NCBI RefSeq assembly: GCF_018139625.1
Contig: NZ_JAGSOH010000001.1
Location: 1 to 64,000, forward strand
Direction: 5' to 3'
Length of the DNA: 64,000 nucleotides
Source of the DNA: Actinospica acidithermotolerans
GTDB taxonomy: Bacteria > Actinomycetota > Actinomycetes > Streptomycetales > Catenulisporaceae
Position 1 is the stretch's first letter, and each line of letters begins with the position of its first letter. The notes beneath the pieces were generated by a model. That model was not told the DNA's origin, did no database searches, and was given only the letters and a program-made list of their open reading frames with translations. Shown piece after piece: positions 32,118-40,695 of this stretch. The position numbers were made by a program, and so were the translations under genes.

Positions 32118-32747
32118 CTATTCTTCGCCGTCGTCCTCGAAGCCCGGGTGGTTGAGCACCCAGTGGCCTGTTTCGTCTTGGTGCACGAGCTGGTAGAGCT
32201 GTGTGTCTCCGGCGAGCATTCGCGGGAGGGTGAATTCGAGTTCGGGGAAGAAGTTCGGCCGCCAACCGTCGTCGTCCGTGAACGCCGCGGGGTCGCTGCT
32301 GACGGCGGCCACGACGGCGACGTTGACGGCATGCTCGTACTCCTCCTCGGCATTCTCGTCGAGGCCGGTCGCCTTCAGGTCGCACCAGGCGGCGAGGACG
32401 CCCTGCAGGCCCTGGACCGTAGTGTTCATCTGCTCGGTGTCGTCGGCAGGTTCGTCTGCCTTGCCCCAGCGCATCCACACCAAGCCGTCGGTCAGACTGA
32501 CCCAGTAGCTGTTGTCCTCGTCGGTGTAGTTGGCGAGGAACGCCGCAGGTCCGCAGTCCGGCAGGTCGGCGCCATTCAGCTCCCGGACCGAGTCGCGGAT
32601 GAAGATCTCGTACGCGTTGTGCGGCAGCCCTCGTCCGCCGAGCGCGTCGGCTGCGTGCTGCGGTACTTCGGCGTGTTCGAGCGTGTCGGGGTCGTACGGC
32701 GTCCACTCGGGTGTCTCGTAGTAGAGCCGGTCGTCGTCGGTGCGCAT
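32118..32747 (-). CDS. acidic protein, possibly SUKH-4-like immunity protein
   Basis: A 209-residue, very acidic soluble protein. The central section (GRGLPHNAYEIFIRD, then LANYTDEDNSYWVSLTDGLVWMRW) resembles the SUKH-4 immunity fold, in which a glycine-rich start is followed by a display strand with the substrate's residue name. Immunity proteins of this kind protect against polymorphic toxins. No toxin gene adjoins it. The assignment is tentative; an unrelated acidic protein is possible. Confidence 0.5.
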   Translation of the reverse strand: MRTDDDRLYYETPEWTPYDPDTLEHAEVPQHAADALGGRGLPHNAYEIFIRDSVRELNGADLPDCGPAAFLANYTDEDNSYWVSLTDGLVWMRWGKADEPADDTEQMNTTVQGLQGVLAAWCDLKATGLDENAEEEYEHAVNVAVVAAVSSDPAAFTDDDGWRPNFFPELEFTLPRMLAGDTQLYQLVHQDETGHWVLNHPGFEDDGEE

Positions 32748-32944: not shown

Positions 32945-35008
32945 ATGCGTGCTGGTGAGACGACCTTCGCGGGCTTACTGGAAGGCAAGAAGCAGTTCCA
33001 GGTTCCGCTGTTCCAGCGTCCGTATTCCTGGAAGGAAGATCAGCTTGGGCAGCTGTGGCTGGACATCCTCGAGCAGGCCGAGCTGATCACCGAAGGTACC
33101 GAAGGTTCTACGCACTTCCTCGGGTCCGTGGTCCACGCCCCGTCACCGCAGCACACAATGGCCTTCCCCCGCGCGCTCGTGGTCGATGGCCAGCAACGGC
33201 TGACCACTCTGTCCCTGGCGTTGGCCGCGCTGCGTGACCACGTGAGGGCGTCCGATCCTGATTGGGCCGCCGAGATCTCGCGCCGGTTCCTGGCCAACAG
33301 CCGTACCCAGGGCGACGACACGGTCAAGCTCATGCCCACCCAGGCCGACCGGGCTACATACCGGGCCTACATCACCGGACCGCCGCCAGCCGCTGACGAT
33401 TCCAAGGTCGGGTTCGCCTACCGGTTCTTCCTGGCGAAGCTCGCCGAGATCGCGATCAGCGATGACCAACCGCCGCTCGAGAAGATTGAAGAGGCGATCA
33501 CATCGCGGCTGACGCTCGTGGAGGTCAGCGCGGACGAGCGCGACAACGTCTACCGGATCTTCCAGTCACTCAACAACACCGGTCTCGATCTCACTCAAGC
33601 TGACCTGCTACGCAACTACCTGTTCATGCACCTGCCCACCCGCGGCCAGTACGTCTACGAGAATCTCTGGACGCCGCTGCAGAAACGCCTGGACCCCAAG
33701 CAAATCGAGCACCTCATCTGGCTGCAACTCGTACTCGAGGGCGAGAACCGAGTTCGCCGTCAGGACGTATACCGGGCTCAACGGGATCGATTCACCGCCA
33801 CCGACGAGGACGAAGGCGTCTACGAGGCCTACGCCGAGGAACTGGTCAGGCGTTCCTGGCACTACCAGACCATGGTCGATCCCGCGCACGAGAACAACCC
33901 CGAAGTTCGCACTGCGCTCACCACGCTGCGCCGCTGGGACGCGGAGGTCATCGCCCCGCCGGTCATGCTCTTACTCGACCATCGCGAACGTGGCCTGGCC
34001 ACGGACGCACAGGTCGCACGCGCTCTCGGGCTGATCGAAAGCCATCTCGTGCGCCGTATGATCTGCCGCGTCCCTTCGGCTGGACTGAACCGGTCGTTCA
34101 TGGATCTGCCGGGGCAGCTCGACCCGGGTGCAGCCGTCGATGAGGAGATCCACCGGCTTCTCTCATCAGAGCGTCGCTCCTGGCCGACCGACGCGGAGGT
34201 TCTCGACGCGATCTTGACCAAGCCGTTCTACCACTACGGCCGTGCCAACCAGCGCACTTTCGTCCTGCGCCGTCTGGAGGAGTCGTACGAGCACCCTGAG
34301 CCGATCGACTTCGCCTCCGCCAAGCTCACGGTCGAGCACATCTTGCCCCAGACCCCCGGCCCGGAGTGGCTCGAAGTGCTGGCCGAGGACGCTCTCGACG
34401 GCGAGGAGCCGCTCGATCTGCACGCCAGGATCAAGCACACCCTCGGCAATCTGACCCTGACCGCACAGAACAGCAAGCTGTCCAACCATCCGTTCCAGCG
34501 CAAGCAGGATCTGCTCAACCACAGCCACCTCGAACTCAACCGCCGGATTGCGGCCACCAAGCGCTGGGGCGCTGCGGAAATCGAGCAGCGCGGCCGCGAA
34601 CTGGCGAAAGCCGCGATCGAGATCTGGCCTGCCCCACTACCTGGACCACACGGGCCGACGGAGGGCAAGGACTGGTCGCTGCTGCACCAGGCGCTCGCCG
34701 CGCTCCCGCCCGGCGCTTGGACCACCTACGGAGACCTCGCCGCTCTCATCGGCTCCGCCGCCCAGCCCGTCGGCAACCACCTTGCTCAAGCCACAGACGT
34801 CACCAACGCATGGAGAGTGCTCAACTCCGCAGGCAAAGTCGCCGAGAACTTTCGCTGGACAGGCGAGAACCGCGGGCCGGTCCTCGACGTCCTGCGGGCG
34901 GAAGGTGTTCGCATTGACAGCAAGACCAAGCGAGCCGACCCTGCGCAGCGCATCAGCGCCGACGAACTCGCAGCTCTGCTTGGCCTCGGTGGCGGGGAAG
35001 ATTCCTGA
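32945..35008 (+). CDS. GmrSD-like DUF262/DUF1524 nuclease with alkyltransferase-like tail
   Basis: A 687-residue fused restriction factor. Residues about 1-230 are DUF262/GmrS-like: FQVPLFQRPYSWKEDQL and the nucleotide-binding VVDGQQRLTTL. Residues about 430-540 are DUF1524/GmrD-like HNH nuclease: LTVEHILPQTPGPEWL with the catalytic His, then KHTLGNLTLTAQNSKLSN. GmrSD restricts phage DNA with modified (glucosylated hydroxymethyl) cytosine. Residues about 560-640 resemble the DNA-binding domain of O6-alkylguanine transferase (PPGAWTTYGDLAALIG, then NAWRVLNSAGKV). The reactive Cys of the PCHR motif is absent, as in alkyltransferase-like proteins that bind but do not repair. It stands alone. Confidence 0.88.
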   Translation: MRAGETTFAGLLEGKKQFQVPLFQRPYSWKEDQLGQLWLDILEQAELITEGTEGSTHFLGSVVHAPSPQHTMAFPRALVVDGQQRLTTLSLALAALRDHVRASDPDWAAEISRRFLANSRTQGDDTVKLMPTQADRATYRAYITGPPPAADDSKVGFAYRFFLAKLAEIAISDDQPPLEKIEEAITSRLTLVEVSADERDNVYRIFQSLNNTGLDLTQADLLRNYLFMHLPTRGQYVYENLWTPLQKRLDPKQIEHLIWLQLVLEGENRVRRQDVYRAQRDRFTATDEDEGVYEAYAEELVRRSWHYQTMVDPAHENNPEVRTALTTLRRWDAEVIAPPVMLLLDHRERGLATDAQVARALGLIESHLVRRMICRVPSAGLNRSFMDLPGQLDPGAAVDEEIHRLLSSERRSWPTDAEVLDAILTKPFYHYGRANQRTFVLRRLEESYEHPEPIDFASAKLTVEHILPQTPGPEWLEVLAEDALDGEEPLDLHARIKHTLGNLTLTAQNSKLSNHPFQRKQDLLNHSHLELNRRIAATKRWGAAEIEQRGRELAKAAIEIWPAPLPGPHGPTEGKDWSLLHQALAALPPGAWTTYGDLAALIGSAAQPVGNHLAQATDVTNAWRVLNSAGKVAENFRWTGENRGPVLDVLRAEGVRIDSKTKRADPAQRISADELAALLGLGGGEDS

Positions 35009-35074: not shown

Positions 35075-35581
35075 TTATCTTCGCCAGAGGAAGTCGTCGG
35101 GCGCGCCGAGGTTGAGCCACGTCGTCAGCCAGTCCGCGAGCGTGAGTTCAAGGCTGTGCAGCTTCGGTTCCTCGCTTGGATCCCAGCCCCACAACGGGGC
35201 CGAAGGGTCCTTGAGGTCGATCAACGTCCAGATGCAACAGCCCTCGTCCAGAATCCACAGCATGCCCGGCGGCATGGGGTGGTAGAGCTCGTGATCCGGC
35301 GGAAGCTCTACCGTGAACTCCCTGAAGGCATCGACGATGTCGGCGAAGTCCCCGCTTGATCCACGCCCGCCCGGCACGCCCAGGACTCCGGCACGCGGGC
35401 CGAACCCGCCGTTCGCCACCTCCGTATACAGGCGGCGTAACAGGGCCGGCAAGGCATGTCCGATCGCCGCTTCCGCAGCCTCGACCATTCCGGGGCTCGC
35501 GGGCGCCTCCTTGAACCTGCCTTCGGCGGCCAGCGCGGAAAGCTCCTGGACCAGCTCGTCTTCCGTCACGCCCGCCATCAT
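35075..35581 (-). CDS. SMI1/KNR4 (SUKH) family protein
   Basis: A SUKH-superfamily protein of about 168 residues, marked by AAIGHALPALLRRLYTEVANGGFGP (the Ig(h)xLPxxlrrlY...NGGFGP signature) and WILDEGCCIWTLIDL. Many SUKH proteins are immunity proteins against contact-dependent or type VII toxins. The start is uncertain: the ATG at 35581 matches family length, and an upstream ATG at 35632 would add 17 residues. It is convergent with the DUF262 gene. Confidence 0.82.
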   Translation of the reverse strand: MMAGVTEDELVQELSALAAEGRFKEAPASPGMVEAAEAAIGHALPALLRRLYTEVANGGFGPRAGVLGVPGGRGSSGDFADIVDAFREFTVELPPDHELYHPMPPGMLWILDEGCCIWTLIDLKDPSAPLWGWDPSEEPKLHSLELTLADWLTTWLNLGAPDDFLWRR

Positions 35582-36050
35582 CGACGGCGCAAGCGGACTA
35601 TGTCCACCCTCGATGTAGCTGGTCCTGACCATGACTCGTGCGAGCCGGCTGGCTGCGTCCGGGGGCTACGCCCGACAGAAGTCCCGTTAGCCAACATCTC
35701 AATATACTTGCTTTAAGCCCGGAGACTACTTAGGCGCGGGTGTCGTGGCGCGCACAGCAGACAGGCGAGGGGTCGATGGTCGCGAGCTGCCCATCCAGCT
35801 CGCAGGCGATCTGGACGTTCGTCCTCAGCTACCCGACCCGACTTCGTAGTCACGGCGCGGTGATTCACGGCTTCCGCGTGACGATTCATGGCCCCCGGCA
35901 GTTGGCCGATACTGGCACTTCGAACTCGAAGATCCGGCATGCGATGCTTCACAGATGCCATCGTCAGCGGCAATGCCCGGTGGTATGGTCGTTGCAGCCT
36001 CAGGGGGAGGCCTATCTCATGCGCATGGCCAAGTACGGGGAGGACGTGTC
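35582..36050. other. intergenic stretch before the WXG100-type trio
   Basis: No gene is supported. An AT-rich patch near 35696-35720 (AATATACTTGCTTTAAG) is the likely promoter area. The downstream gene has a strong ribosome-binding site (GGGGAGGA) at about 36037-36044. Confidence 0.45.
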
Positions 36051-38207: not shown

Positions 38208-38840
38208 CTATGCCCACAGATTCCGGCGAGGCTCGAGGACGATGTCGACATCGACGAGATCGCGCCAGCGGGTGTTGGCGGTGCCGCGCTGCATCATCGT
38301 TACGATCTTCTCGGCGAGAACCATCGAGAGCGGGTAACCGGTGATCTCTAGCGTTCCGCCGAGGATCCTGGGCAGCTCGACCGGACGCGGGGCCGGCCAT
38401 ACCGGATCGCCCACGTCGATATCGATATGGAAGGACAAGCGAGCCACCGAGAGCGTCCCGGTGAGGGTGACCCGTACTCCGGTGTACTCGTTTTCATCGC
38501 GGATCGATTCGGCGCTGGCCGAGTCCGGGTCCAGTTCCAGGCCGTCGTCGAGACGGATGGCGGCGATGGCGCGCACCACCTCGCGCATAGCCTCGACCTC
38601 GCCGGAGAGTTGGTCGGCGTACAGATCGATGTCTCGAGTTGGCCGGCGGGTTCCGAAGGCGGCGAGCAGTACGCCGCCCTTCGAGACGAACCGATCGGCA
38701 TAGGGGGAGACGGTCAGCCGGGCAAGGAAGCCCTCAAGGGCGTAAAGCTGGTGCAGCTCGTCCGTGGGGCGAGCCTGCCTGCGCGCAAGATTCTGCAGGT
38801 CGAGGTAGGTGCGCCCGCTCGTGGTCGAGCGGGTCGGGTG
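38208..38840 (-). pseudogene. abiEii: AbiEii nucleotidyltransferase toxin, degenerate
   Basis: Translating 38840 to 38208 gives a clear AbiEii-type nucleotidyltransferase start: TYLDLQNLARRQARPTDEL, LYALEGFLARLT, then the catalytic GGVLLAAFGTRRPTRDIDLY (GS and DxD motifs). There is no ATG, GTG or TTG between the abiEi stop (TAG at 38843-38841) and the catalytic core; the first ATG (38588) lies past it. The C-terminus also stops early, after RWRDLVDV, about 80 residues short of the family. It is in frame with abiEi, separated only by the amber codon. It may be dead, or started by a non-standard codon or readthrough. Confidence 0.8.
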
Positions 38841-39431
38841 CTAGGCAAGGAGTGTCTCCAGGGCGGTACGCAGCGCAGGCCGGGTACGGGGGAAGTCGGC
38901 GGCGAGTCCGAGGAGCGTTGCCGGCTGGCTTCCGGGCAGGCGCAGCCAGCGCTTAAGGGCGCCGATCGCCAGATCGCTTCCTTCACGGTGGCGCAGTCTG
39001 AACGCGTCGATGATGCTGCGTTCGGGGCTGTAGAGGCCGATGGACAGCTCCTTGGTCAGCTCGAGCGTTTCGCGACCGAGATCGAAGGTGGCTGGGGTAA
39101 AGCTGTGCCAAATTGCTGGCGCCCTAGTCGCGGGTCTCCATTGCCCACGGGGGAGGGCGATATCGATACCCGCCGGAATCTCGTCCGTCAGCCCGTGTCT
39201 GGCCAGAGCGGTGGTGAGACATAAGGTGGCCTTTGGAGCTCGTATGGCGATCTCGATCAGGTCGATGTCGGCGTCGTGGCCGCGGTTGCTTCTCTGGAAG
39301 AGGCCGTGCCCGAGCTGTTCGATCTGCCCGTCGTCACGGAGTTTGTAGAGCCGCCGCTTCGAGATCCCGGCCGTGCGCGCGTCGGTATACGTGAAAGTCT
39401 CAGGTAGCGGCGTGTCTGTAGCTCCGCTCAT
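38841..39431 (-). CDS. abiEi: AbiEi family antitoxin
   Basis: A 196-residue antitoxin and autorepressor of the AbiE type IV toxin-antitoxin system. The N-terminal winged helix is visible (YTDARTAGISKRRLYKLRDDGQIEQLGHGLFQR), followed by the DUF-type AbiEi domain (IRAPKATLCLTTALARHGLTDEIP, SIGLYSPERSIIDAFRLRHREG). The ATG at 39431 follows GAGGCAGG, a good site. A large inverted repeat at 39475-39521 just upstream is a likely autoregulatory operator. The partner toxin reading frame downstream lacks a start codon. Confidence 0.88.
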   Translation of the reverse strand: MSGATDTPLPETFTYTDARTAGISKRRLYKLRDDGQIEQLGHGLFQRSNRGHDADIDLIEIAIRAPKATLCLTTALARHGLTDEIPAGIDIALPRGQWRPATRAPAIWHSFTPATFDLGRETLELTKELSIGLYSPERSIIDAFRLRHREGSDLAIGALKRWLRLPGSQPATLLGLAADFPRTRPALRTALETLLA

Positions 39432-39474
39432 CGTGCCTGCCTCTACGCGCGTCGGTCCTGACAACCGCATTCTG

Positions 39475-40035: not shown

Positions 40036-40695
40036 GTGGATCCGCTGCACGAACGCGTCGCGCGCACAGCGCTGGCAACGATCGACAAGTTCGGCTTCGT
40101 GCTCGCCGGGGGCTACGCGATTCAAGCCCATGGCCTTCTCGAACGCATGTCCGAGGATGTCGACCTGTTCACCGACCGCGGTGACCCCGCCGCATTCGAG
40201 GCCGCGGTCCGAGCAGTCAGCGAGGCGTGGATGCAAGAAGGCCTCATCGTCACCCTCGACGCACAGCACGAGACTTTCGCGCGGTTCACCGTCACCGATG
40301 AGCAGCACCAATCCATGAAGGTCGAACTCGGCTACGACTGGCGGGCGAATCCTCCGGCTCGAGCAGCCGTCGGGCCAGTCCTGCACCGCGACGACGCGGT
40401 CGCCAACAAGATCTGCGCAGCCTTCTCCCGAGGACTGCCTCGGGACTACATCGACATCCACGCCGCCATGACCACAGGCGGCTACACCCGCGAGCGACTC
40501 GTTCAACTCGCCGCCGAACACGACCCCGGGTTCGACACAACGGTCTTCGCACAGGCCTTGCTCGCGAGCTCCCGCTACGACGATACCCGCTTCACCTTCT
40601 ACGGCCTCGCCCCCGAGCAGGTCGCCGCACTGCGCCGGGATCTGCTCGATTGGGCTGAAGACCTCCGTCAAACCGGTGAAACCCAGATTCTCTGA
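40036..40695 (+). CDS. AbiEii/AbiGii-type nucleotidyltransferase toxin
   Basis: A 219-residue nucleotidyltransferase of the MNT/AbiEii superfamily. Motifs are GFVLAGGYAIQAHGLLERMSED (GG followed by H-G) and VDLFT (DxD), then later LHRDDAVANKICAAF and LPRDYIDIHA. Such toxins transfer nucleotides to tRNA or proteins. The GTG start at 40036 lies four bases past the upstream stop. Unlike abiEii at 38208, this gene has intact ends, so the island holds one working and one broken copy of the class. Confidence 0.85.
   Translation: MDPLHERVARTALATIDKFGFVLAGGYAIQAHGLLERMSEDVDLFTDRGDPAAFEAAVRAVSEAWMQEGLIVTLDAQHETFARFTVTDEQHQSMKVELGYDWRANPPARAAVGPVLHRDDAVANKICAAFSRGLPRDYIDIHAAMTTGGYTRERLVQLAAEHDPGFDTTVFAQALLASSRYDDTRFTFYGLAPEQVAALRRDLLDWAEDLRQTGETQIL

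What the first reader, a model, noticed from the sequence alone, without database searches (positions are those of the whole stretch)
32945..35008. GmrSD-like nuclease fused to an inactive alkyltransferase-like domain
The fused DUF262/DUF1524 protein carries an extra C-terminal domain like the DNA-binding half of O6-alkylguanine transferase. The reactive Cys is missing. In a modification-dependent nuclease this could be a reader of modified bases, widening the range of phage DNA recognised.
Basis: partly seen in the sequence, partly recalled or inferred. Interest (0 to 1): 0.6.

Follow-up and report, generated by a model that had tools for sequence, protein, structure and literature searches.

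The report
GmrSD-family nuclease with dead alkyltransferase-like tail
This gene encodes a DNA-cutting defence enzyme of a known family (GmrSD) that carries, at its end, a DNA-repair protein fold stripped of its reactive cysteine and of its base-flipping arginine; the combination was already noted in Streptomyces in 2015, but the tail proves to be an old, strictly kept module that different bacterial nucleases share, and what it recognises is untested.

Summary
ORF 32945-35008 (687 aa) is an intact DUF262/DUF1524 (GmrSD) protein whose C-terminal ~100 residues match PF01035 above Pfam's cut-off. Predicted alone, the tail folds like the alkyltransferase-like protein Atl1 bound to DNA (Z 11.2). 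The alkyl-accepting Cys is Ala, as in 122 of 137 distinct nuclease tails (Pro in 15, Cys in none).

(1) The fusion is published: Machnicka 2015 found PF01035 in GmrSD proteins, mainly of Streptomyces. (2) The Arg finger that flips bases in AGTs and ATLs is also lost (Gln here; Arg in only 1 of 135), so the tail is not an ordinary ATL and canonical base flipping is unlikely. (3) The tail is a module: one old GmrSD clade always carries it, a separate GmrSD clade carries it after a RAMA domain, and PD-(D/E)XK nucleases end in it. It is under purifying selection about as strong as the nuclease domains (dN/dS 0.14).

Best reading: a repurposed AGT-type winged helix serving as a DNA-recognition or targeting module in the slot where other GmrSDs carry RAMA. 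Reading of a modified base is plausible but unshown. Known kind, new detail; interest about 0.36.

The parts
32945..35008 (+). Whole gene: GmrSD (DUF262-DUF1524) nuclease with AGT/ATL-like tail, 687 aa
   Evidence: ORF; domains; homologues of the same architecture
32972..33625 (+). GmrSD_N / DUF262 (residues 10-227), NTPase-type ParB/Srx-fold domain
   Evidence: PF03235 E 7e-33; full-length model matches DndI 9jfl and SspE 7drr
33185..33199 (+). DGQQR motif (residues 81-85)
   Evidence: Read in the sequence; invariant in 34 homologues; family signature in PMC4619093
34181..34609 (+). GmrSD_C / DUF1524 (residues 413-555), HNH (His-Me finger) nuclease domain
   Evidence: PF07510 E 2.2e-29
34334..34339 (+). 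Glu464-His465 of the VEHILPQ motif (HNH active site); Asn502, Asn509 and Asn514 follow
   Evidence: All invariant in A2; E/D-H-N-N motif as defined in PMC4619093
34676..34972 (+). AGT/ATL-like winged-helix tail (residues 578-676)
   Evidence: PF01035; model and fold search
34763..34765 (+). Gln607, at the Arg-finger position (R128 of human AGT, R39 of Atl1)
   Evidence: Profile alignment to Atl1; Arg in 1 of 135 tails, Arg in 26 of 28 AGT/ATL-type comparators
34778..34780 (+). His612, commonest residue at this place of the recognition helix (107 of 137 tails)
34808..34810 (+). Ala622, at the alkyl-acceptor Cys position (C145 of human AGT)
   Evidence: Ala in 122 and Pro in 15 of 137 tails, never Cys
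34856..34858 (+). Trp638 of the F-x-W motif, aligned with the YRW of E. coli Ada
   Evidence: Trp in 128 of 130 tails; alignment to 1sfe; pocket role of Ada W160 in PMC10779285

Best explanation
A stand-alone type IV-like (GmrSD family) restriction nuclease: DUF262 binds and hydrolyses NTP and gates the DUF1524 HNH nuclease (inferred from BrxU, SspE and Eco94GmrSD, not tested here). Its tail is a catalytically dead, AGT-derived winged-helix domain that serves as an accessory DNA-recognition or targeting module. It contacts DNA through the old helix-turn-helix and the former lesion pocket but does not flip bases with an Arg finger and does not transfer alkyl groups. It occupies the interchangeable C-terminal slot, after the IWPxP end of the nuclease body, where other GmrSDs carry RAMA or other domains. 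The target is most likely a mark or DNA feature of invading DNA; if it is a base mark read in the pocket, a small one. Shown: domains, fold, motif losses, conservation, module sharing. Inferred: DNA binding, targeting role, type of mark.
For: Both GmrSD motif sets intact and invariant. Tail has AGT/ATL fold. Cys and Arg finger lost together across 137 tails while the Tyr of 'TYG' (135 of 135) and the Arg of 'RVL' (137 of 137) are kept. Purifying selection on the tail is close to that on the nuclease domains (dN/dS 0.144 against 0.127 and 0.101; mean identity 58% against 61-62%). Every one of 38 members of one GmrSD clade keeps the tail; a second, well-separated GmrSD clade has RAMA plus tail; PD-(D/E)XK proteins related to phage-defence candidate PDC-S11 end in the same tail. 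RAMA alone fills the same slot in other GmrSDs. In Actinocrinis the gene lies directly upstream of DISARM drmD and drmMI. No methyltransferase stood out as a conserved partner, which fits type IV.
Against: No binding or cleavage data. Tails are less basic than AGTs (mean net charge of the helix-turn-helix half -0.3 against +1.9), which weakens generic DNA binding. RAMA's own function is disputed (PMC11037411). The predicted model's side-chain positions could not be inspected.
Confidence: 0.55

Rival explanations
1. The tail is a specific reader of a modified base: it binds a mark on phage DNA in the former lesion pocket and licenses the nuclease.
For: Shares slot and proteins with RAMA; pocket-side residues highly conserved (Tyr32, Arg61, Trp75 of the tail); other winged-helix fusions read m6A without base flipping (PMC11037411); type IV family known to need modified DNA (PMC12707154).
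Against: Arg finger lost; no substrate evidence; the Ada-type Trp argues against bulky marks such as glucosyl-hmC in that pocket.
Confidence: 0.35
2. The tail is only a non-specific DNA clamp, or a dimerisation or structural element, and specificity stays with DUF262/DUF1524.
For: AGT helix-turn-helix contacts are non-specific and in the minor groove (PMC10779285); GmrSD homologues without such a tail are common.
Against: Strict retention and shared use by unrelated nucleases; low positive charge.
Confidence: 0.3
3. ATL-type damage sensor: the tail binds O6-alkylguanine and directs the nuclease, or excision repair, to alkylated DNA.
For: Nearest fold and profile matches are ATLs; archaeal AGT/ATL-EndoV fusions are known (PMC10779285).
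Against: Arg finger absent; RAMA and DISARM contexts point to defence; ordinary AGT/ATL-family proteins with PCHR or PWWR motifs exist elsewhere in the same genome.
Confidence: 0.07
4. Partner of host phosphorothioate modification, as SspE and DndI are.
For: Closest solved full-length structures are DndI and SspE.
Against: Own genome has no DndC; only 1 of 42 tail-bearing GmrSD genomes in the order has one (16 of 294 overall; Fisher p 0.48).
Confidence: 0.04

Closest known systems
GmrSD homologues with a PF01035 domain (Machnicka et al. 2015, PMC4619093)
   Same: Same three domains; reported in several GmrSD homologues, mainly of Streptomyces
   Different: In the passages read that paper gives only the domain assignment; loss of Cys and Arg finger, module sharing and selection were not seen discussed
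GmrSD, Eco94GmrSD and BrxU type IV restriction enzymes
   Same: DUF262 DGQQR and DUF1524 E/D-H-N-N motifs
   Different: Low identity; no AGT-like tail known there; their substrates are modified cytosines, here unknown
Alkyltransferase-like proteins (Atl1, E. coli ATL, V. parahaemolyticus ATL)
   Same: Fold (Z 11.2 to 3gx4), Tyr, active-site Cys replaced
   Different: Arg finger lost, Cys replaced by Ala or Pro rather than (mostly) Trp, fused to a restriction nuclease, less basic than AGTs
RAMA-bearing GmrSD proteins (e.g. L240, L246, L250)
   Same: Accessory domain in the same C-terminal slot; in L207, L208, L209 and L244 both domains occur together
   Different: RAMA is an unrelated fold
Archaeal AGT/ATL-EndoV fusions (PMC10779285)
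   Same: AGT-type C-terminal domain joined to an endonuclease
   Different: DNA-repair context, different nuclease; the review's alignment marks the Arg finger as conserved
DndI and SspE (9jfl, 6jiv, 7drr)
   Same: Closest solved GmrSD-type structures
   Different: Work with host phosphorothioate systems; this genome has no DndC

Membership tests
GmrSD family | DUF262 domain with DGQQR motif | tested here: met
   PF03235 E 7e-33; DGQQR at residues 81-85, invariant
GmrSD family | DUF1524 domain with E/D-H-N-N motif | tested here: met
   PF07510 E 2.2e-29; E464 H465 N502 N509 N514 invariant; motif
GmrSD family | NTP-stimulated cleavage of modified DNA | not testable with these tools
   Needs protein and modified DNA
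O6-alkylguanine-DNA alkyltransferase (AGT) | Reactive Cys in PCHRV | tested here: not met
   NAWRV; Ala or Pro in 137 of 137 tails
Alkyltransferase-like protein (ATL) | AGT C-terminal winged-helix fold | tested here: met
   Z 11.2 to Atl1-DNA; PF01035 above cut-off
Alkyltransferase-like protein (ATL) | Cys replaced, Tyr of base flipping kept | tested here: met
   Ala622, Tyr595; most ATLs have Trp at the Cys place
Alkyltransferase-like protein (ATL) | Arg finger conserved | tested here: not met
   Gln607; Arg in 1 of 135 tails; definition from PMC10779285
DISARM accessory gene | Lies next to drm genes | tested here: not met
   Adjacent in Actinocrinis and a drmD relative within about 8 kb in some other loci; the ten window genes scanned around it show no DISARM match
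Phosphorothioate-sensing SspE/DndI type | Host phosphorothioate modification genes present | tested here: not met
   No DndC in own genome; SspABCD genes not searched

The most novel reading that the evidence does not exclude
The AGT fold has been recycled as a new class of modified-DNA reader: a dead-Cys, Arg-fingerless winged helix with a conserved Trp/Tyr/Arg pocket that senses a small base mark without flipping by Arg, shared as a plug-in among GmrSD, GmrSD-RAMA and PD-(D/E)XK-RAMA-like nucleases of Actinomycetota.
Probability: 0.27. Interest if true: 0.65.

Novelty: new member of a known kind. Interest (0 to 1): 0.36.

Why it matters
If the tail reads a mark, a DNA-repair fold would join SRA, EVE, winged-helix and RAMA domains as a sensor of phage DNA modification, and about one genome in seven of the window's order in our sample (42 of 294) would carry such a sensor on a GmrSD. 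The joint loss of Cys and Arg finger gives a clear question: can an AGT fold recognise a mark without flipping the base? If the tail is only a clamp, it is an ordinary accessory domain.

Tried and rejected
Degenerate remnant: rejected, dN/dS 0.14 on the tail and retention in all 38 clade members. Ordinary ATL: rejected on the Arg finger. Phosphorothioate partner: no association with DndC. Linked methyltransferase: none stood out as a recurrent neighbour; recurrent ones are XRE/DUF397-type regulators, a GajB-like UvrD helicase in about 20 loci and DISARM drmD/drmMI in some; this was a rough six-frame ORF clustering with antisense ORFs included, not a gene-by-gene annotation. Plasmid-borne spread: one plasmid only. 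The ~170-residue domain after the tail in most relatives has no Pfam match. The middle domain of the PD-(D/E)XK-tail proteins has no Pfam RAMA hit but aligns to RAMA by profile (hhalign probability 82%, E 1e-5 for one comparison): suggestive only. Deep branching among tail types is unresolved. Coordinates of the model were not available, so the pocket could not be measured. Papers: no held paper was found that discusses this tail beyond the 2015 domain note; most subscription journals are not covered.

Full report
WHAT IS THERE. The ORF at 32945-35008 on the + strand encodes 687 aa. Pfam finds GmrSD_N (DUF262) at residues 10-227, GmrSD_C (DUF1524) at 413-555 and DNA_binding_1 (PF01035, the DNA-binding half of O6-methylguanine transferases) at 582-639, all above Pfam's cut-offs. 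The GmrSD signatures are intact: DGQQR at 81-85, VEHILPQ with E464-H465, LGNLTL..N and N..F..K; their key residues are invariant in 34 aligned homologues and match the motifs given for the family (PMC4619093). Against solved structures the full-length model matches DndI, SspE and BrxU.

THE TAIL'S FOLD. A profile of 14 tails finds S. pombe Atl1 and a Vibrio ATL first in the PDB by sequence (E about 3e-7). The tail modelled alone with 78 aligned sequences has pLDDT 84 and pTM 0.76. Its best structural match is Atl1 bound to DNA (3gx4: Z 11.2, 97 residues, rmsd 3.1), then Atl1 and the Vibrio ATL (Z about 10), then AGTs (Z up to 8.9), well above the unrelated winged helices (Z 3.5 and less).

WHAT IS MISSING FROM IT. 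In 137 distinct nuclease-type tails the acceptor Cys is Ala (122) or Pro (15) and never Cys. The Arg-finger place is Gln, Val, Ile, Leu, Met or Ala, with Arg in 1 of 135; AGT/ATL-type comparators from the same phylum have Arg in 26 of 28. The Tyr of base flipping (135 of 135) and the Arg of RVL (137 of 137) are kept. A review of the family states that the Arg finger and the Tyr are conserved in both AGTs and ATLs (PMC10779285). The tail therefore fails a defining feature of ATLs, although it has their fold. Features typical of the tails include Trp592 (all of 130), a His in the recognition helix (107 of 137) and F-x-W (Trp in 128 of 130), the last aligned with the YRW of E. coli Ada, whose Trp160 limits that pocket to small groups. 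The helix-turn-helix half is on average uncharged (-0.3) where AGTs are positive (+1.9).

DISTRIBUTION AND MODULARITY. In 294 genomes of the window's order, 42 hold a GmrSD with the tail and 11 a PD-(D/E)XK protein with it. A scan of 84,980 genomes found 291 relatives; the best 80 are all from Actinomycetota by their titles. Architectures: (a) GmrSD-tail, as in the window, Actinocrinis and Mycobacterium/Mycolicibacterium; (b) GmrSD-tail plus about 170 residues without a Pfam match, in most Streptomyces, Micromonospora, Streptosporangiaceae and others, and longer in Nocardia; (c) NucS_C-like PD-(D/E)XK (weak Pfam matches; PADLOC PDC-S11, E 2e-49), a RAMA-like middle, then the tail; (d) a different GmrSD clade with a true RAMA domain (E 6e-16) and then the tail; (e) tail followed by an unassigned domain (L074). 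In the tree of GmrSD bodies all 38 proteins of type a/b form one side of a branch (support 91), and the RAMA+tail proteins lie in a distant part (support 100), so the tail joined GmrSD bodies at least twice or was lost repeatedly in between. GmrSDs without the tail carry, after the same IWPxP end, RAMA or other domains. This is the strongest evidence that the tail is an exchangeable functional module.

SELECTION. Between the window protein and its nearest relative (L033) dN/dS is 0.144 for the tail, 0.127 for DUF262 and 0.101 for DUF1524; mean pairwise identity in 34 homologues is 58% for the tail, 61% and 62% for the two domains. The tail is not a relic.

NEIGHBOURHOOD. In the window the gene stands between a divergent SUKH-4 gene and a convergent SMI1/KNR4-like gene, with WXG100-type and AbiE genes further on; none of the ten nearby genes scanned is a clear defence component in PADLOC. 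In Actinocrinis the orthologue is directly followed by DISARM drmD and drmMI, and a drmD relative lies within about 8 kb in several other loci; no conserved methyltransferase partner stood out (rough method). DndC is absent from the own genome and co-occurs with the tail-bearing GmrSD in one genome only, so the protein is not a standing partner of Dnd phosphorothioation.

HOW IT MOST LIKELY WORKS. By analogy with BrxU, SspE and Eco94GmrSD (PMC10952713; not tested here), DUF262 senses and hydrolyses NTP and releases the HNH nuclease of DUF1524. The tail most likely adds contact with, and selection of, the target DNA. Canonical base flipping is unlikely without the Arg finger; other winged-helix domains in type IV enzymes read m6A without flipping (PMC11037411), so a non-flipping reader is possible, and a non-specific clamp nearly as likely. 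I hold targeting or recognition in general at 0.55; as separate, partly overlapping claims, a true modified-base reader at 0.35 and a mere clamp or structural part at 0.3.

KNOWN OR NEW. Machnicka et al. [quoted passage not shown] The architecture and the general idea are therefore known. New here, as far as the held papers show: joint loss of Cys and Arg finger, the Ada-like Trp, the sharing with RAMA-bearing GmrSD and PD-(D/E)XK nucleases, the two GmrSD placements and the selection result.

Noticed in passing
L095:6340-6831, L141:6352-7146, L168:6376-7236: Most tail-bearing GmrSDs carry a further conserved ~170-residue C-terminal domain (GGWIGHG..TTS.FLML...IWPLTLYP....EVVFQ.L..R.PF) with no Pfam match; longer in Nocardia and Actinomadura.
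   Followed up: partly
L054:7748-9163, L060, L133, L150: PD-(D/E)XK (NucS-like, PDC-S11-like) proteins with a RAMA-like middle domain and the same tail; they and the RAMA-GmrSD tails share a C-x2-C near the recognition helix (TCxQCPN) that the window's tail lacks.
   Followed up: partly
L212, L213, L217: Small related proteins keep the Arg finger (ARAIG, ARFVG, ARAVG) but have Pro in place of the Cys: an ATL-like family of its own, function unknown.
   Followed up: no
L074:7894-8934: 348-aa protein that begins with the tail, followed by an unassigned domain that looks to the eye PUA/EVE-like.
   Followed up: no
L093:6385-12314: In Actinocrinis puniceicyclus the orthologue lies directly upstream of DISARM drmD and drmMI.
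   Followed up: yes
window 38208-39470 and 40036-40695: AbiEi antitoxin-like and AbiEii toxin-like genes; the minus-strand AbiEii (126 aa) covers only part of the Pfam profile and may be truncated.
   Followed up: partly
window 32118-32747 and 35075-35632: The nuclease gene is flanked by two SUKH-family immunity-type genes (SUKH-4; SMI1/KNR4 just below its cut-off), with WXG100-type genes following: looks like a contact-toxin immunity locus.
   Followed up: partly
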